DNA of 64,000 bases from positions 744,001 to 808,000 of the forward strand of contig VUYT01000003.1 in assembly GCA_008802785.1 (NCBI GenBank), in the 5' to 3' direction. The notes beneath the pieces were generated by a model. That model saw only the letters and a program-made list of their open reading frames with translations. It searched no databases and was not told the DNA's origin. Source of the DNA: Symmetrospora coprosmae. Its lineage: Eukaryota; Basidiomycota; Cystobasidiomycetes; Symmetrosporaceae. The translations under genes and the position numbers were made by a program. Position 1 is the stretch's first letter; every line of letters begins with the position of its first letter. Below are positions 43,739 through 61,952 of this stretch, piece after piece.

Positions 43739-44820
43739 ATGATTGCCTCCGTCGCGTCCCTCGCTCTCCTCGCCGCCCCGCTGGCCGTGGCCCGCAAGAT
43801 GACCGTCGAGAACAGTGAGTGTAATCCGGCGTGGTCGAGCCTTCCGCGCATGTAGCCTGATGAGCCTCTGCACATTCACAGATTGTGACTTCAAGGTAGA
43901 TGACATGAGCTCGCACCATCTACATGCTCCCGCCTGACATTCTCTGGAATTCCTGCTCAGATCTGGCCGGCCATGTTCAGCTCGGTCGCTCCCCCTGATC
44001 ACCCGACAGGCTGGGAGGCCGAGGGACAGAGCTCTGTCACTTTCGACCTTCGTGGGTCTCGCCAAGCGATATCAAGTCGACCTTCGGGCAGAAGATCGCG
44101 CTGACTTGTACCCTTCGATAGCTCCCCACTGGAACGGGCGGATCTGGGCCCGAAGAGACTGCGACTGGAGCATTGTGCGTTTCTCAAGCTCACCTGTAGG
44201 CTCTCCTCGATTGCATCCCTGATAAGCCCCTCCGCTCGTAGGACGATACTGTCAACGCCTGCGCGACTGGAGGCTGCCCTGAGGGCGATGGCGGCAAGTT
44301 CACCTGCCGCGCCACTGGCCGACCTCCTGCCTCTCTTGCCGAGTTCAACATCGACGCGGACGGGACTGATTGGGTGAGGAGACCCTTGCGCGCTGCGTCT
44401 TAGAAGCGAGGGCGGCTGCCGACGAAGTTTGCCACACCGCAGTACAACGGATCTCTGGTCGACGGCTTCAACCTGCCCATCCTGATTGAGACGACCAAGA
44501 ATTGCAAGTCCCCCGCGTGCACGGCCGACGTCAACAAAGCGTGCCCGGAGGTGCTACAGATCAAGGACGCGCGCGGGGCCGTCGTGGGCTGCAAGACGGA
44601 CTGCGGCATAGACCCCAACCCGTCCAACTCTGGCGCATGCTGCTCGGGCGAGTTCTCCACCCCGGACAAGTGCTTTGCGTCCGGATCGCCCAACTGGATC
44701 CCCGTCGTCAAGGAGCAGTGCGGCGAGGGCATCTACTCGTGGGCGTACGATGACCACACCAGCCTCTTCACCTGCCCGTCCGCGGACGACCTCGACTACA
44801 CCGTCACCTTCTGCCCGTGA
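43739..44820 (+). CDS. secreted thaumatin-like protein
   Basis: Cys-rich secreted protein; fungal members are often beta-1,3-glucan-active and wall-associated. Exons: 43739-43814, 43882-43895, 43961-44051, 44122-44174, 44242-44373, 44443-44820; 247 residues. Signal peptide MIASVASLALLAAPLAVARK. Family motifs: MTVENNCDFKIWPAMFSS at the N-terminus (split by a 14-nt exon), HWNGRIWARRDC, FTCRATGRPPASLAEF, YNGSLVDGFNLPI, CKSPACTADVN, GACCSGEF and the ending YDDHTSLFTCPSADDLDYTV. The length is close to the usual 220-250. The last exon appears as an ORF; the upstream exons were joined by phase. Confidence 0.9.
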
Positions 44821-54061: not shown

Positions 54062-55486
54062 ATGGTCAACAAGCTGCTCCTCGGTCTGTTCGCAGTGTTG
54101 ATGCCCGCTTTCGTCGCGGCGCAGTGCGCGTCGGACTTGGACTGCTCAATCATCACGGGAGCGAGGTGCGACGGCGGAGTGTGCCGAAGAAGTGCGTACC
54201 TCTTTGCTGCTACTCCCCCTCCTCTGCGCTGACATGCGTCGCACTGTCTCCTCGTCTCCCTGTGATGGACATGCAGCTCTCGGATGCAGCAACAACAGGG
54301 AGTGCTTCGACAAGATCGGCAACTCGGCAGCCATCTGCGACGTCTCGCTCAACGCTTGCTTCGTGCCGTCGACCAATGGTGCGCGTCCTCGATTCTTCCC
54401 ATTCGGTGCCCACAGAAGCTGACTGCAGGATCTGCTTCTGGACGCAGTGCTAAACGGCGCTGCGGAAGGCCAGCAGTGTGGACTCGATGCTACTAGGAGG
54501 GGAGATGATTTCTCGTGTGCTTTGGGCCTGATCTGCCGAGGCCAGGTCTGCAACCAGCCCAGTCAGTTCTACTCGCCTGCTCGCGGCGACCGCCAGAGTC
54601 GGGACAAAGAAGCGACATGACATGCTGATCTGCCCTCGTACCCCTCGCGAACAGGTACGGTCGTTCAGGCTATGGGGTGCCCGAACGCTTTCTCCTGCGG
54701 GCCAGACGCACCGTGCAGCGGCGGGCAGTGCTCCAGATGTGCGTGGCTAGCAGAAGCGCTTACTGATGCAGACGCTCGGGGTTGCTGATGCGTATCTTCG
54801 GCTGACCTTGACTCGCATCCAGACAGCGGCTGCGGTTCGGACGCGGAGTGCGCGCGCAAGACGGGATTAACGCGAGCAAGATGCGACAGGGCCAGCAATG
54901 CTTGCTTTGTCGCTTCAGACAACCGTTCGTGTCTCTCTGCAGCTTGCCTTCTACGGTACTGCATCGGCTGATTCTGCTCATCTACACCTCTGCAGCATCG
55001 GGTCTACCCCAAGGAAGCGCCTGCGGGAGCGATCCGACCCGCAAGTCAGATGACAATTCGTGTGCATCCGGCCTCGTCTGCAGAGACCTGAGGTGCCAAA
55101 ATAACGGTCAGTGGCCACTTTGGGCGTTCCCCGGTGGCTCTTACCAATCCCGCACGAGACAAAGACTGAAACCTCAACATCTGGCCCCTTCCCTGCATGC
55201 AGTCCTCGGCGCCGGCTGCGCAACGAGCGCTCAGTGCCCAACGAGCCAAACGTGCGTCATCCCGTCGCTGCTGAAGCGGAGCAACCTCTTCATTGGCGGG
55301 ACGTGCACGGCCGAGGATCAGCCTTCGCCGCTGCACAACCCGGGCACGGGCGGCAAGTACAAGCGTTCCCTTCGCGTTGGACAAGATGGCGTGCAGGACG
55401 CGCGCGCCGTCATTCGCGGAAGGCAGGCGCTCACCCCGAGGCAGTACCGCACGAAAGCGCAGTCAGAGGTGGCGGCTCTGGCGTAG
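54062..55486 (+). CDS. secreted modular cysteine-rich protein, cluster gene 1 (two A-B-C units)
   Basis: Unrecognised family. Exons: 54062-54191, 54277-54378, 54448-54561, 54655-54738, 54823-54924, 54996-55106, 55203-55486; 308 residues. Signal peptide MVNKLLLGLFAVLMPAFVAA. Each exon carries one four-cysteine module. A (CASDLDCSIITGARCDGGVC) has spacing C-5-C-7-C-4-C. B (CSNNREC...ICDVSLNACFVPS) follows, then C (QCG...SCALGLICRGQVC). A second A-B-C set follows, less well conserved in A. The last exon has CATSAQCPTSQTCV, GGTC, then a Lys-Arg site in KYKRSLRVGQDG and the conserved tail AVIRGRQALTPRQY. Every intron is phase 1. Likely exported and possibly processed by a Kex2-type protease. Function unknown. 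Confidence 0.82.
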
Positions 55487-56607
55487 GTTGCGTCCCCTCG
55501 TACCGACACTTACGCACCGCGCGTGTGCTTGCGGGCGTCCTACAGCTGCTTCTGCACACCTGTTCGGTGGTCATGCGTTCTCGCAGCGACATCACTGGCC
55601 TCGACGTCGTCGCTGGCGTCTTCAGGTTACCAGGGAGAGGCCATGCCGAAGACAGCCTGGCCAGCTCAGACGCTGCGCGATCATGCAGGGGCGCGGACAT
55701 GAGTGTGAAGGGGGACGCGAGTAGCAGATGACGGAGCCGCGACCAACTATATACGCGCATTTAAAGACGCAGTTTGGGACATATCTCTTTGTTGTGACAG
55801 CCTTCCCGGCACGAGGTGGGCACTTGCAGGCCATCCTCCGCTCACACGCAGCTCCTTGAGATTGTCTAGCGATGTCCAGCGCAGAGCTCTCCCCGTTCTC
55901 AGCACTTCTCAACCGAGGTACTTTGCGATGAGCGGGTCCCGTGTCTGTCCCCCAAGGTCGATCAGGACGGGACGTCTCTTTCCTCCACTCCCACAGAGGA
56001 AAGCAGCCCGAACGCCGCAGAGATACGGCGCCATTGAAAGCTTCCGCGCACAGCCTGCCCGCCAGATCGCCTTCCCGCTCCACGCGAGCTGGCTCTTCCC
56101 GGTCTGACTCCCCTTGTTTCCCCATCCGTCACAGACCTCGGCTGGACGCACGCGCTCCCGGTGGAAGATCACCGCAAGAGCTTCTGGTAGGGGCAGCGGG
56201 GAGGCTGAAGGAGGCTGTCAGGATGTCTCGTCCTATTGATTGCGCCCACGCTGCCCCCGGTCGCTGCGTCTGAGCCGTGACGGGATGCTCTGATCGACAG
56301 TCTCGCACGGGAAGCCCATATTAATACGACTGACCGATTGCGTACGCACAATATCCCCCACTCTCGCCACACAATGCGTTATCTACGGCCACCGAGCCCT
56401 GACGAGATGTATGACGTGCGCCGGCACGCGCATCCTGCCTGCCCCGCAGACCGCTGTCGCTAGCAGGACCTTTCCTGCCTACCTGTCCTGCAGCCCTGAT
56501 GTCCGTCCCTTCGCTCTCTTCCCTCTCCGCTTGCATTTCGTTCTTCCCATCAGCTGCGCGATACCGTCTCGCAGGCCTTGCCGCTTCCGCTAGCCAAGGC
56601 AGCGAGT
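55487..56607. promoter_or_regulatory. intergenic, cluster genes 1 and 2
   Basis: 1.1 kb. It holds the second copy of the shared inverted-repeat element (55934-55975). No gene-like ORF. Confidence 0.5.
55934..55975. promoter_or_regulatory. shared inverted-repeat element, copy upstream of cluster gene 2
   Basis: Left arm GGGTCCCGTGTCTGTCCC, centre GATCAGG, right arm GACGGGACGTC. About 630 bp from the start codon. Same layout as the copies at 53645 and 58179. Confidence 0.45.
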
Positions 56608-57642
56608 ATGATGACCAACAAGTTGCTCTTTTTGCTGGTCTCCAGCTTGCTCCCAGCTCTGGCCCGGGCCGTGTGCACCACAAACGATGACTGCGACACG
56701 GCGGCCGGGGCAATGTGCAATGGGGGGGCAGTGCAGCAGAAGTACGCATATCTCCAGGCCGCCCGATGCGCTTGCCCGATCTCCCGACCCCACCGAGCGG
56801 GAGCGGGTAGGGCTTCGGCTGCACTTCACGTGCGGATCTTGTACTGACACACACGCTTACTCTTGTCCACGGTCGCAATCGGCTCCCTCCCCGCTCAACG
56901 CCGTCACGCGTCGTGACCTAATACCTAATCCAGCCTTCACCTGCGACTCGGACGCACAGTGCTACCTAAAGACGCGCGTGCCGCGTGCGCGCTGCGATCG
57001 GGAGCTGAATGCATGCTTTGTCGCCTCCTCTGCGCGTGAGTGACCGCAGGATATTGCGTTGGGCACAGCAGCTCTCGGCTCTTGCGGTGTAGACTGATTG
57101 CGCCGGGCCTGTCAGTTGGCGGTATCCAGTCAGGTCAGGCCTGTGGTACTGCGGACATGCCTGACAGGACGTCCGATGACGGAAGCTGCAACTACGGCCT
57201 GGTCTGCAGGAACCTGGTCTGCACAGACGGAGGTGAGCTTTGATGGTGCGAAGCGATTGCATGGCCGCTGAAATTGAATCTTCAATCAGTCGTCGGTGCT
57301 GGTTGTCTCAAGGACAAGGACTGCGGAGCAAATCAGGTCTGCATCTTCCCCAAGATCGTCATTCCCCTCCCCGATCCACTCGACCCTGGACCGCTTCCCC
57401 CTCCGCCTATTGATTTGCCCGGCATCGACTTGCCTGTCCTCACGCGCCGCAACGGAATCTTTGCTGGTGGAACATGCTCGAGCGAGCCGCCGCCGTCCCC
57501 ACATTACGACCCGATCAATCTCAAGTACAAGCGCTCACTTCGCGTCGGCCAGCCGGGCGTCGATGATGTACGGGCCGTCGTGCGAGGTCGACAGGCGAAA
57601 ACGCCCAGGCAGTACCGGGCATTCGCCGCTCAGCCTTCTTAG
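56608..57642 (+). CDS. secreted modular cysteine-rich protein, cluster gene 2 (one A-B-C unit)
   Basis: Paralogue of gene 1 with a single A-B-C unit. Exons: 56608-56741, 56934-57035, 57116-57232, 57290-57642; about 234 residues. Signal peptide MMTNKLLFLLVSSLLPALARA. Module A starts CTTNDDCDTAAGAMC; B is CDSDAQCYL...RCDRELNACFVAS; C is ACGTADMPDRTSDDGSC then NYGLVCRNLVC. The tail has CLKDKDCGANQVCIF, a Pro-rich insert, GGTC, the dibasic KYKRSLRVGQPGVDDVR and AVVRGRQAKTPRQY. Oddity: a run of seven G at 56722-56728 in module A puts the end of exon 1 one base out of the phase used by all its relatives. This is either a sequencing length error in the homopolymer or a real lesion. Without it the usual GGQCSR ending would be expected. 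Confidence 0.72.
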
Positions 57643-58890
57643 CAGCACCGCGTATGCTAGGGCAACCATCCGGATGGCTCCTATCAGCGCTCCGGCATAG
57701 AGGTTTCGATGCAGTCGGGGAGACGCTTTGCCTCGCGGACGGCCAGTCGACAGTAGGTTTGCGCAGGCAGTACATTCAGAGGATCACAGTCAGTTAGAGC
57801 TGGTGTAGATTAGGGAGTAGTTGCCGCAGAGCGTGTCCTTCAGGAGGTTCCGAGGCGGTACCAGTGGTCGATGACGCAGAACGCGTCTTCGTCTGTCTTT
57901 GTCACCCAACACGGAAGCGAGCCAGCCCGCAGTTGCTGGTCACAGCAGAGCAGCAGAAGCCAAGTCAAGTGTGCATCACACTCGAGCTTCAGCAACGAAT
58001 GCCGGGCCGCCGCGCGCACGCTTGCAGAGCTCTTCGGTGCCGATACGCATAGACGGCACGCTTCGCCGCACGGAACGCGAGATAGGGCACATAAGAGCAA
58101 AGAAGTGTGAGAATGCGCTTCGTTCGACATTGTCGAGACCCCTCAAGCCTGGCTCTTTTGCCTTCGGCGGACGGACGGACGTCCCGGTCCCGTCATTTCC
58201 GATCAGGTCCGGGGGGGGGGAGGGACGGGACGTCGGCGCCTCTGGAGATCCCTCTGTCTGCTTCCCCCCTTTCTCCCGCCGATACAACACTCTTGACAGC
58301 GACTGGGCGTGTAATACGAGACAGGAACACACTCCGCTGGGAGCAGATCAACTTCGCATGGCAATCTCCTGACACGCGACCACAGCGTCTTCCCGCTGGA
58401 CCTGATTGGGCCTTCCCGTCAGATGCCACCCCGCACAGCTTCGCATAGAAGCCAAGCAGTGGGCCACTCTGCTTGCCTTATGGTACCTGAGAGCATTCAC
58501 TAATCAGCTCGGCTTCCCGCAAATGCGCCCGGAGAATCATGCTGAGCGCTCCGGATGCCCTGTGGTGGCCTGGACGAATCTGGACCTGTCCAACGGGAGG
58601 CGCACATGCACGCGCGCCCCTGTGGCATCAATCCCCGCTCTACTGGCTACAGGTCCCGCCGAAAACCTTGCCCTCCTCGCTGTCAGTCACCGCGCAATGC
58701 CTTGGCCCGTCTAGCAGGTCGGCCTACCCTGGCAGCCGTCGTTTAAGGCTGTTCCCGCCGGCCCTGCTCTTCTCCTCTCCATCCAGGCGTCGTACTCTGT
58801 CCACTCTCCTTCCGCATTTGTGACCGTCTGTGCTGCTTTATCCATCCTACAGCAGTCCACACTCGCTCTCACAGCACAAGAACCGCCGCA
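57643..58890. promoter_or_regulatory. intergenic, cluster genes 2 and 3
   Basis: 1.25 kb with the third copy of the inverted-repeat element (58179-58233), which contains a run of about ten G near 58211. No gene-like ORF. Confidence 0.5.
58179..58233. promoter_or_regulatory. shared inverted-repeat element, copy upstream of cluster gene 3
   Basis: Left arm GACGTCCCGGTCCCGTC, centre GATCAGG, a G-run, right arm GACGGGACGTC. This is the most perfect of the three copies: the right arm is nearly the reverse complement of the left. About 660 bp from the start codon. Confidence 0.5.
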
Positions 58891-61502
58891 ATGGTCAAGA
58901 AACTCCTCCTCCTGGTGGCCGCCCTCCTGCCGGCTCTCGCCTCAGCAGCCTGCACTGTCGACTCGGACTGTGACACACGCAGTGGAGCCAAGTGTGTTTC
59001 TGGAGTATGCAACCGGAGTTAGTGGCCCCCTTCTCTACTGGTTGCTTCAGGGCTCCAGCCGCACGTGATCGTATCGGTCTGACCCTTTCGGCCTTGCGAC
59101 ACGTAGCCTATGGGTGCACCACCAATTCCGAATGCAGGACGGCAGCAAAGACTGGCAACCCGCTTGCCCTATGCGAGCCGAACACCGGCTTCAACAACGC
59201 TGGCGCTTGCTACGTTCCTTCCCGCACCTGTGAGGGCCGTCACACTAGCTCGAAGAGCGATGATGAGCGCTTCTTTTCTGACGGTCGCGTTCCGGCTTGT
59301 AGACCATGGACGATCCGAGGGAAGCCAGTGCGGTAGCGGCAGTGGAGTCGGCGACGACATCGAATGTGACCGAGGCCTCGTCTGCCGGGAATTCCGCTGC
59401 GCAAAGCCGGGTTAGTGCACAAAGAGATGCCCGCCTGGTCGCGCACACAGCAGCACAAGCTGAGTCAAGCATTCACAACTGGCTCGATCTTGTCTCGTCT
59501 CGTCTCTGCTCGCAGCTACGATCGAGACACCCGCAATGTGCACCACCTCCGGCGATTGCGACATTCGAAGCGGAGCTCAGTGTGTCAATGGCCAGTGCTC
59601 GCGCAGTGAGTCACTCGCTTGTCCCAGCCTTCCATCGCTACTCCGAGATGGCAGCTCCTGATCTGCCTTCCACCCTCAGCCTTCACCTGCACGTCAAACA
59701 CGGAATGCCGATCCGCCGCGAAGACGAACAACCCTGATGCCCTTTGCGACATGGAGCTGAACGCTTGCTTCGTGCCCTCAAAGAACCGTGAGTCGAGTCA
59801 AAATTCGCTCGTTTGCGAGGATCTCGCTTATTTGGGTCTTTCGATACATCAGCCTTCGGAATTCCTGCTGGAGGAGCTTGCGGAACGACAGACATGCCAC
59901 GTAGGCAGGGAGACGACTCTTCATGTCTTCGGGGCTTGGTCTGCCGCAACCAGATTTGCACCGGAGCATGTCAGTCACTGCCGTGGACTGGATCGTGTCG
60001 CGTACCACGGCAACCCGACTGACTCGTACATTGGCTTGATCTCATGCAGCCAACGTCGCCACCTCGTGCAGCTCTAACAGCGACTGCGACACTGCAAGCG
60101 GAGCCATGTGCAACAATGGCCAGTGCTCTCGAAGTGGGTTGCCCTCTTTCGATTTCCCGGTCTAAAGCCTCTGCCTGGTCTGCCCTAATATTGAAAGCAC
60201 TCACTAACAAACACCCTTTGGCATCTCGCGTCTGTTCGTGGCATCATCTCACCTCATGCAGCCTTCCAATGCACCACGAACGCCGAATGCCGATCCGCTG
60301 CCAAGACCGGCAACCCTACCGCCCTGTGCGACCGCGAGCTGAACGCTTGCTTCGTACCGTCCACCAACAGTGGGTCACGTCTCGCTGCCATCGGTCCCAC
60401 CCACAATTGGCTGAGTCGCCCTTTTGCCACACAGAGCGCGGAATCGCCGAAGGAGGCGAGTGCGGTACCGCAAACGTCCGCGATACCGGCGACGACCAGA
60501 GCTGCGACTCCGGACTGGTGTGCCGAAACCTGGTCTGCACTCGACGAGGTTGGTCGCTTTCCTGTCCTACCACGGAGGCAAAACTTCCGAGCATAAGCGC
60601 TGATCCTTCGGCCGACCCGCCCGTCACCGTTTCGCAGAGGCCGTTGCAGCGAGATGCGAGTCGAACGCCGACTGCGACACTGCCAGTGGTGCCAAGTGCA
60701 ACGGAGTCCAGTGCGACAGGACCAACGGATGCAGTTCCGACATGGAATGCCAGTCCGCGCTGAAGACCGGAAGTGAGTCACCTTCAGCATCCTCAGTGCA
60801 GCCTCTTAGCAATGCTAATCTGTGTCTACGATCTGGAAGACCCTCGTGCTGTGTGTGACCGCACCGCCAACGCTTGCTACGTCCCTTCGACCAACCGTAA
60901 GCAGCAGTCCTTGCTCTTCCCCGACTGCCCCGAAAAGACACCGCTCCTGACCTTTCTTGGATCTCCCTGCTTTTCTTGTCTATCCCTCCGTACATTGCAT
61001 ATACCTCTTTGTCCACATGCCCCATTTCTCCTCCTCGGCGCCGCGCCTCATCCCTCCAGGTGACGGTATCCCTAAGGGCGGAACGTGCGGATCGTTCCAG
61101 CAGCCAGGACGAGCCGGCGACGACATCTCGTGCGACTTTGGTCTCGTCTGCCGCGACTTCACGTGCCAGGATATGGTCATCGGGGCCAGCTGCCGCACGA
61201 ACGAAGACTGTGGTCCGCACCAGACGTGCGTCAAGCCCAGGAACACCGTTCTTGCACGCGGCGGGCACTACGAGCACCACAACCAGAAGGGCACATGCAC
61301 AGACCAGCCGCAGAACTCGCCTTACCCGCACTTCCCCCATATCCCGGTCTTCGAACTGCCAGACGTCAACCTCCCAGACGTGCCCCCTCTTCAGCTCCGC
61401 AAGCGCGCGGTTGCAGGCGTCGACGACGTCAAGGCCGTCATTCGCGGGCGACAGGCACTTACGCCTAGGCAGTACATTGCTCGGGCTGCGCGGCCCTCGT
61501 AG
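58891..61502 (+). CDS. secreted modular cysteine-rich protein, cluster gene 3 (four A-B-C units)
   Basis: Largest member. Exons: 58891-59017, 59107-59229, 59303-59410, 59516-59605, 59680-59787, 59853-59969, 60050-60133, 60262-60369, 60435-60548, 60638-60772, 60840-60896, 61060-61502; 537 residues. Signal peptide MVKKLLLLVAALLPALASA. Module order is A-B-C four times and then the shared tail. Examples: A CTVDSDCDTRSGAKCVSGVC; B CTTNAECRSAAKTGNPTAL then CDRELNACFVPSTN; C ECGTANVRDTGDDQSCDSG then LVCRNLVC. All introns are phase 1. In unit 4 modules A and half of B share one exon (60638-60772), and a new intron lies inside B. The tail has CRTNEDCGPHQTCV, a His/Pro insert, LRKRAVAGVDDVK and AVIRGRQALTPRQY. 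Function unknown. Confidence 0.84.
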
Positions 61503-61952
61503 AAGCGTACACCGCCTCGGGCTTGCCCGCTCTTCTTCTTTCTTTTGGCGCCGAAATGGCCAAAGCCACGTACCACGGACTCTGGTACCTTCTCCGCCCA
61601 TACACTCCGTCTCATATTCCTTTCTCTCCTCTGTTCTCGTCCGATGCGCCTTTGCCGTCCGTCGATAGTTGCCGCCGAGGCAAACAAGCAGAGGTGCTCA
61701 TCAAGTCAGGTGCAACCCCAGTTTACAAAGCCGAGAAGCGGCCATTCCGTACCTTAGAACAACAAGCTTCGCGATGTATCTTTTCTCATATCTTCGTTCC
61801 AGAGCAGGGCTTACCCCTGACTCTACACCTTTGGGGGTACATTTATTTTTCCGCAATGAAGTCCCAAAAATGAAAAAGCTACATGGTTGCGAGCAGGCTT
61901 GACTTGAGAACATTGCGATGCATGAGACGACGTGACCGCGCCTGGCGGATCT
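61503..61952. other. convergent intergenic region
   Basis: 450 bp between two 3' ends. Small ORFs without support. No other feature. Confidence 0.45.

What the first reader, a model, noticed from the sequence alone, without database searches (positions are those of the whole stretch)
54062..61502. Tandem family of secreted proteins built from 1, 2 or 4 copies of an A-B-C cysteine-module unit
Three adjacent genes share a signal peptide, a repeating set of three four-cysteine modules (A: C-5-C-7-C-4-C; B: C-5-C-10/12-C-6-C; C: C-14-C-5-C-4-C in the clearest copies) and one common tail. They differ mainly in unit number: one in gene 2, two in gene 1, four in gene 3. I recognise no described fungal family with this design. 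The short DxDC...C...C pattern of module A is loosely like Dickkopf-type or other knot-like extracellular modules of animals, but that is only a resemblance. Roles as adhesins, effectors or peptide precursors are all open.
Basis: partly seen in the sequence, partly recalled or inferred. Interest (0 to 1): 0.88.

Follow-up and report, generated by a model that had tools for sequence, protein, structure and literature searches.

The report
Fungal secreted proteins from exon modules
Three neighbouring fungal genes appear to encode secreted, cysteine-rich proteins built from one, two or four copies of a three-part unit whose parts mostly sit on separate exons that can be copied without breaking the reading frame, a gene design usually associated with animal matrix proteins.

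Summary
Genes 1 (54062-55487, 308 aa) and 3 (58891-61502, 537 aa) are open spliced models with signal peptide, 2 and 4 A-B-C units and a common tail. Gene 2 has one unit, but a seven-G run puts its A module out of frame at the usual splice. All 17 introns of genes 1 and 3 are phase 1, at constant places relative to the cysteines; elsewhere in the window 14 of 47 predicted introns are phase 1. No Pfam family passes its cut-off, but B-C also occurs three times in a 1393-aa CPL1-like protein on another contig, once with phase-1 introns at nearly the same places. The family is thus a lineage-specific relative of that cassette, expanded as symmetrical exons. Function is inferred: wall or matrix proteins working like Cfl1-type adhesins, with a conserved C-terminal peptide behind a Kex2-like site. 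Dickkopf membership is not supported. No RNA was available, and a simple gene finder saw only the last exon.

The parts
54062..55487 (+). Gene 1: 7 exons, 308 aa, 28 Cys, two A-B-C units plus tail
54062..54191 (+). Gene 1 exon 1: signal peptide + module A1
54277..54378 (+). Gene 1 exon 2: module B1 (class 1-1 exon)
54448..54561 (+). Gene 1 exon 3: module C1 (1-1)
54655..54738 (+). Gene 1 exon 4: module A2 (1-1)
54823..54924 (+). Gene 1 exon 5: module B2 (1-1)
54996..55106 (+). Gene 1 exon 6: module C2 (1-1)
55203..55487 (+). Gene 1 exon 7: module D and tail
55361..55366 (+). Gene 1 dibasic KR (Kex2-like) before the conserved C-terminal peptide
   Evidence: coordinates counted
55388..55447 (+). 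Gene 1 conserved peptide GVQDARAVIRGRQALTPRQY
   Evidence: coordinates counted
56608..57643 (+). Gene 2: one unit plus tail; frame broken at the end of A
56608..56741 (+). Gene 2 exon 1 at the expected donor: signal peptide + A, 134 nt, phase 2 because of G7
56722..56728 (+). Seven-G run that sets the A end of gene 2 out of frame with B
56934..57035 (+). Gene 2 exon 2: module B
57116..57232 (+). Gene 2 exon 3: module C
57290..57643 (+). Gene 2 exon 4: module D and tail
57529..57534 (+). Gene 2 dibasic KR before the conserved peptide
   Evidence: counted; frame
57556..57615 (+). Gene 2 conserved peptide GVDDVRAVVRGRQAKTPRQY
   Evidence: coordinates counted
58891..61502 (+). Gene 3: 12 exons, 537 aa, 52 Cys, four A-B-C units plus tail
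58891..59017 (+). Gene 3 exon 1: signal peptide + A1
59107..59229 (+). Gene 3 exon 2: B1 (1-1), with a five-residue insertion
59303..59410 (+). Gene 3 exon 3: C1 (1-1)
59516..59605 (+). Gene 3 exon 4: A2 (1-1)
59680..59787 (+). Gene 3 exon 5: B2 (1-1)
59853..59969 (+). Gene 3 exon 6: C2 (1-1)
60050..60133 (+). Gene 3 exon 7: A3 (1-1)
60262..60369 (+). Gene 3 exon 8: B3 (1-1)
60435..60548 (+). Gene 3 exon 9: C3 (1-1)
60638..60772 (+). Gene 3 exon 10: A4 joined to the first part of B4 (no intron at A|B)
60840..60896 (+). Gene 3 exon 11: rest of B4 (extra phase-1 intron inside B)
61060..61502 (+). Gene 3 exon 12: C4 joined to module D and tail
61401..61406 (+). Gene 3 dibasic KR before the conserved peptide
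   Evidence: coordinates counted
61416..61475 (+). Gene 3 conserved peptide GVDDVKAVIRGRQALTPRQY
   Evidence: coordinates counted

Best explanation
A lineage-specific family of secreted, disulfide-rich proteins of a basidiomycete. It shares a cassette (B-C) with a CPL1-like protein elsewhere in the genome, where the cassette (A'-B-C) sits between repeats; with its own first module and tail it became a stand-alone secreted protein. Because A, B and C are mostly separate exons with phase-1 introns on both sides, whole exon triplets could be duplicated in frame, giving genes with 1, 2 and 4 units (inferred from intron phases, positions and sequence relatedness). The proteins most likely work as extracellular wall or matrix components: a signal peptide sends them out, each unit's 12 cysteines make a stiff rod segment, unit number sets length and valency, and cutting at a Kex2-like KR frees or exposes a strongly conserved C-terminal peptide. 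This is like Cfl1, a CPL1/PriA-family adhesin of Cryptococcus that has no GPI anchor, sits in the wall, is partly cleaved and released, and acts as a matricellular signal. Shown here by computation: anatomy, intron phases, B-C homology, conservation of the peptide. Inferred: secretion, disulfides, Kex2 cleavage, rod shape, matrix role, and the direction in which the cassette moved.
For: Open models with signal peptide and tail. A model of the seven window B-C pairs scores the three contig-6 cassettes 44-51 bits and P0001's two 31-35 bits; the best of 200 Cys-fixed shuffles of the contig-6 protein is 6.0. The last exon of the contig-6 gene scores 99.6 bits for CPL1-like against a cut-off of 27.4; its middle cassette has phase-1 introns at A'|B and B|C. 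The seven window units form one side of a branch against the contig-6 and P0001 cassettes, support 98/96. 17 of 17 introns of genes 1 and 3 are phase 1; A|B in 5 of 5, B|C in 6 of 6 and C|A or C|D in 5 of 5 lie a constant number of residues after the last cysteine; 10 of 19 junctions allow only phase 1. Tail peptide dN 0.14-0.18 against dS 0.9-1.8. A KR precedes it in 3 of 3 genes (gene 2 read). Cfl1 behaviour: PMC4047104 and PMC9786196, passages seen.
Against: No RNA or protein data: splicing, secretion and cleavage are unproven. My simple gene finder, at four settings, called only 61017-61502 over the last exon of gene 3, not the short exons. At 6 of 19 junctions no splice pair, the chosen one included, had good donor, YAG and branch-like site together. 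The window proteins give no CPL1-like match, so Cfl1 is an analogue, not a shown relative. Gene 2 may be inactive. The similarity seen by eye between A and the CPL1 repeats failed its control. The B|C intron of contig 6 is one codon off the window's, only one of its three cassettes has these introns, and A' has two cysteines, not four. Unit copies inherit their introns, so the 17 phases are not independent.
Confidence: 0.5

Rival explanations
1. Secreted effectors that act on another organism: copy-number-variable cysteine-rich proteins, diversifying in the modules and kept constant in the tail.
For: No relatives found outside the same or a very close organism for the whole design, tandem cluster, C modules diverged with pN 0.32-0.51 while the tail peptide is constrained, a mosaic allele or sister sequence.
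Against: 0 of 21 pairs of C modules show pN above pS; neighbours with ordinary domains such as Sin3, histidine biosynthesis and RhoGAP (ten ORFs scanned); the B-C cassette also sits in a giant CPL1-like protein; the lifestyle of the organism is unknown.
Confidence: 0.2
2. Multi-headed inhibitors or antimicrobial proteins: each unit, or each module, binds one protease or microbial target, so unit number sets valency.
Confidence: 0.1
3. Precursor of several cysteine-rich peptides: proteases cut between units and free single modules, as in multi-copy hormone or pheromone precursors.
For: Repeated units; dibasic sites exist.
Against: Eight dibasic sites in genes 1 and 3: only the KR before the tail peptide is common to both (and gene 2), two lie inside a C module, and one of four C|A unit boundaries has one. 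The A-B linker is five residues long.
Confidence: 0.07
4. Origin only: plain tandem duplication of an intron-bearing unit, with no intron-mediated recombination or shuffling between genes; phase 1 throughout is inherited from one ancestral unit and has no further meaning.
For: Units lie in tandem; only four or five junction types are independent; A-B-C order never changes; no copy was found elsewhere in the genome apart from contig 6 (only the best candidates are scored there).
Against: Within one ancestral unit A|B, B|C and the unit boundary are all phase 1, against 14 of 47 elsewhere in the window; B-C occurs in a second protein context with phase-1 introns at nearly the same places; P0030 switches from 56% to 72 of 73 identity at the intron 9/exon 10 boundary.
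Confidence: 0.5

Closest known systems
CPL1-like / PriA-Cpl1 family (PF21671, IPR038955, PTHR35192), incl. Cfl1, Dha1, Dha2, Cpl1
   Same: Secreted basidiomycete proteins; the genome's own CPL1-like giant carries the B-C cassette; Cfl1 has no GPI anchor and is partly cleaved and released (passages).
   Different: Window proteins give no CPL1-like match; own A module, own D module, own tail peptide; mostly one module per exon.
Animal mosaic matrix proteins built from class 1-1 exon modules (PMC8001218)
   Same: Extracellular, one module per exon, phase-1 introns on both sides, variable copy number.
   Different: Fungal; no sequence link to an animal module passed a cut-off in genes 1 and 3; only one change of context (B-C) seen, no free mixing of modules.
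Dickkopf N-terminal region (PF04706)
   Same: Four-cysteine C-5-C-n-C-n-C look of A, B and D (by eye).
   Different: Not listed for genes 1 and 3; the genome's only match is 22.3 bits, below the cut-off of 25, in a different gene; 12.3 bits in a contig-6 piece.
DUF7107 (PF23416) and DUF5885 (PF19232)
   Same: Best weak Pfam matches, 16.5 bits (gene 3) and 18.5 bits (gene 1).
   Different: Both below their cut-offs (24.6 and 33.2).

Membership tests
CPL1-like (PF21671) | Domain score over the curated cut-off 27.4 bits in the window proteins | tested here: not met
   PF21671 not listed for gene 1 or gene 3 at E up to 5
CPL1-like (PF21671) | Shares a homologous cassette with a bona fide member | tested here: met
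CPL1-like (PF21671) | Wall-associated, cleaved and released, signals to neighbours (Cfl1 behaviour) | not testable with these tools
   needs tagging and colony immunoblot; behaviour of Cfl1 from PMC4047104 passages
Class 1-1 module exon shuffling | Module borders coincide with exon borders | tested here: met
   16 of 17 introns of genes 1 and 3 lie in linkers (177 of 612 residues); exceptions: one intron inside B4, no intron at A4|B4 or between C4 and D in gene 3
Class 1-1 module exon shuffling | Nonrandom phase, symmetrical exons | tested here: met
   17 of 17 phase 1; alternatives enumerated; elsewhere in the window 18 of 55, 14 of 47, 11 of 39 and 10 of 31 at four settings; models not confirmed by RNA
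Class 1-1 module exon shuffling | Modules found in new combinations in other genes | tested here: inconclusive
   B-C in the CPL1-like giant and P0001 only; A, C or D alone not seen elsewhere in the searches made
Dickkopf_N (PF04706) | Score over cut-off 25 bits | tested here: not met
GPI-anchored fungal adhesin | Hydrophobic C-terminal anchor signal | tested here: not met
   C-termini of the three tails show no hydrophobic stretch (read by eye, no predictor run)
Kex2-processed secreted protein | KR at a conserved place, cleaved | tested here: inconclusive
   KR before the tail peptide in 3 of 3 genes (gene 2); cleavage not testable
Scorpion-toxin-like disulfide fold | Fold match of the cassette model | tested here: inconclusive

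The most novel reading that the evidence does not exclude
Exon shuffling of class 1-1 modules, held to be practically confined to animals, operates in a fungus: cysteine-rich extracellular modules with phase-1 introns on both sides are duplicated as exon sets and moved between a CPL1-like giant and a new secreted family, and unit arrays still recombine in introns (P0030 mosaic), an independent parallel to the origin of animal matrix proteins.
Probability: 0.35. Interest if true: 0.85.

Novelty: new variant of a known kind. Interest (0 to 1): 0.62.

Why it matters
Section 2.3.1 of PMC8001218 (read in full) says modular proteins made by exon shuffling are restricted to animals and that there is practically no evidence in other eukaryotes, and asks why. 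A fungal family in which almost every extracellular cysteine module is its own phase-1 exon, with 1, 2 and 4 units side by side and the B-C cassette present in another gene, makes that question testable in a small genome. It also gives a natural length series (1, 2, 4 units) for asking what unit number does in a secreted fungal protein, and extends what is known of proteins around the CPL1/PriA group.

Tried and rejected

Literature: nine searches (listed 20 of 303, 20 of 276, 10 of 10, 8 of 13, 15 of 143, 12 of 37, 8 of 8, 4 of 4, 23 of 23) listed no paper that by title or abstract start treats this family or class 1-1 exon modules in a fungus; the library is open-licence PMC only. PMC3380952 (no hit for the terms) and PMC4530338 (a reference entry only) gave nothing.

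Species: not named. A phenylalanine ammonia-lyase exon was compared with the PDB but that named no species. Named hits of a contig-6 exon are Sporobolomyces, Rhodotorula, Pseudohyphozyma and Meredithblackwellia, and, weaker, a moss and bacteria; the class Microbotryomycetes was looked up for Pseudohyphozyma only.
Full report
What is there. The window lies in a 20.05-Mb genome in 77 contigs, 60.9% G+C over the window. Three plus-strand genes occupy 54062-61502. I joined exons at GT-AG sites by hand and checked the reading frames. Gene 1 has 7 exons and 308 residues with 28 cysteines; gene 3 has 12 exons and 537 residues with 52 cysteines. Both begin with a hydrophobic signal peptide (by eye), continue with two and four A-B-C units, and end with a module D and a tail. 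Gene 2 has signal peptide, A, B, C, D and tail exons, but a run of seven G (56722-56728) gives a 134-nt first exon, so the splice used elsewhere does not keep frame. Three other GT-AG pairs keep the assembled sequence open, one with a CAG acceptor (56807-56933); all change the end of A. Whether this is a sequencing error, an altered gene or a dead one cannot be told; I left it as it is.

Are the models real? The exons are not arbitrary. Of 19 junctions tested (6 in gene 1, 11 in gene 3, the last 2 in gene 2), 18 cannot be read through without an intron; 10 allow only phase-1 introns; of 17 GT-AG pairs with a good donor, YAG and a branch-like site, 16 are phase 1 and 1 is phase 2. For 6 of the 19 junctions no pair, the chosen one included, met all three criteria. 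Among 23 exons and 20 introns, 9 exon pairs but no intron pair match at the DNA level at E up to 0.001. All 21 comparisons of C modules have pN below pS. Against: a simple gene finder trained on other ORFs of the window predicts, at one of four settings, 15 genes, but in this region only 61017-61502, and the same at the other three; the exons are short and rich in cysteine. There is no transcript evidence.

The gene design. A, B and C are each one exon in gene 1 and in units 1-3 of gene 3 (the first A shares its exon with the signal peptide). All 17 introns of genes 1 and 3 are phase 1. The place is constant: two residues after the last cysteine at A|B in 5 of 5, six at B|C in 6 of 6, three at C|A or C|D in 5 of 5. 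The exceptions are in unit 4 of gene 3: no intron at A|B, one inside B, none between C and D. Sixteen of the 17 introns lie in linkers, which make up 177 of 612 residues. Elsewhere in the window the gene finder gives 47 introns in 14 genes (10,804 aa), phases 17/14/16 for 0/1/2; at the other settings phase 1 is 18 of 55, 11 of 39 and 10 of 31. That is about one intron per 230 residues against one per 50 here. Because copies inherit introns, only four or five junction types are independent, so this is a design, not 17 separate observations.

Relatives. No Pfam family passes its cut-off in genes 1 and 3; no significant PDB sequence relative. A search of 5.8 billion proteins with gene 3 (8000 candidates scored) gave nothing; one with a gene 1/gene 3 profile (4658 candidates) gave one ORF, P0030. 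P0030 matches exon 10 plus intron 10 of gene 3 at 72 of 73 residues but the stretch upstream at 56% over 69; the change falls at the intron 9/exon 10 border. That is what recombination inside an intron would leave, but it is one ORF from an unnamed assembly, and the upstream part is compared in a frame that is not the coding one for C3. In the own genome a tail query finds only the three genes, while unit and B-C queries also find contig 6. There an eight-exon gene encodes 1393 residues: 17 repeats of the type NCG..GN.CTTSGTG, a CPL1-like last exon (99.6 bits against 27.4; the repeats also pass the cut-offs of cEGF and, in one piece, Stig1) and three A'-B-C cassettes. A profile of the seven window B-C pairs scores them 50.7, 48.1 and 44.3 bits, and the two cassettes of the metagenomic protein P0001 34.9 and 31.2; the best of 200 shuffles of the contig-6 protein with cysteines fixed is 6.0. 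In the middle contig-6 cassette introns lie at A'|B (phase 1, two residues after the cysteine, as in the window) and at B|C (phase 1, one codon off); the other two cassettes lack them, and the introns after C are phase 2 in 3 of 3. Of 29 proteins related to a contig-6 exon (8000 candidates scored), only P0001 has the cassette. In a tree of 12 B-C pairs the window's seven fall on one side of a branch with 98/96 support. So the window family and the cassettes of CPL1-like proteins are relatives, and the window units have one origin; the direction is not shown.

Is it new? The proteins are not members of the CPL1-like family by domain, not Dickkopf-like by any test here, and pass no Pfam cut-off. 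What would surprise a specialist is the gene design. PMC8001218 section 2.3.1 (read in full) states that proteins assembled by exon shuffling are restricted to animals with practically no evidence elsewhere, and that the modules used are of class 1-1. Here most modules meet the two structural signs named there (module borders at exon borders; nonrandom phase with symmetrical exons), in secreted cysteine-rich proteins of a fungus. The further sign, modules in new combinations, is met once (B-C) and otherwise untested. Plain tandem duplication of a unit that happened to have three phase-1 borders explains most of the data, so I give shuffling proper 0.35.

Noticed in passing
G000 contig 6:56167-60806 (-), locus L026 2668-7307: Gene for a 1393-aa protein with signal-like start, 17 CPL1-like repeats, a CPL1-like C-terminus and three A'-B-C cassettes; the introns after C are phase 2 in 3 of 3, so repeat block plus cassette may itself be a symmetrical super-unit.
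   Followed up: partly
window 60354-60855 against P0030: An ORF from an unnamed assembly is 72 of 73 identical to exon 10 plus intron 10 of gene 3 but only 56% alike upstream, a mosaic with its break at the intron 9/exon 10 border.
   Followed up: partly
own genome: C3:130126, C43:61673, C11:1367841, C25:50936, C74:170851, C65:117465, C12:329504, C33:121634, C6:102220: Nine further CPL1-like loci over the Pfam cut-off besides the contig-6 giant; none shows B-C within about 1.5 kb.
   Followed up: partly
window 56722-56728: Seven-G run that puts the A module of gene 2 out of frame with B at the usual splice.
   Followed up: yes
window 44404-44817 (+): Thaumatin-family ORF (101.6 bits) about 9 kb upstream of the cluster.
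   Followed up: no
L042 (G000 C18:222642-222773, -): The genome's only Dickkopf_N match (22.3 bits, below cut-off) lies in an ORF that looks unrelated and has a hydrophobic stretch downstream.
   Followed up: partly
window 60627-61697 (-): A 357-aa open frame runs antisense to the end of gene 3; probably a shadow of high G+C coding sequence.
   Followed up: no
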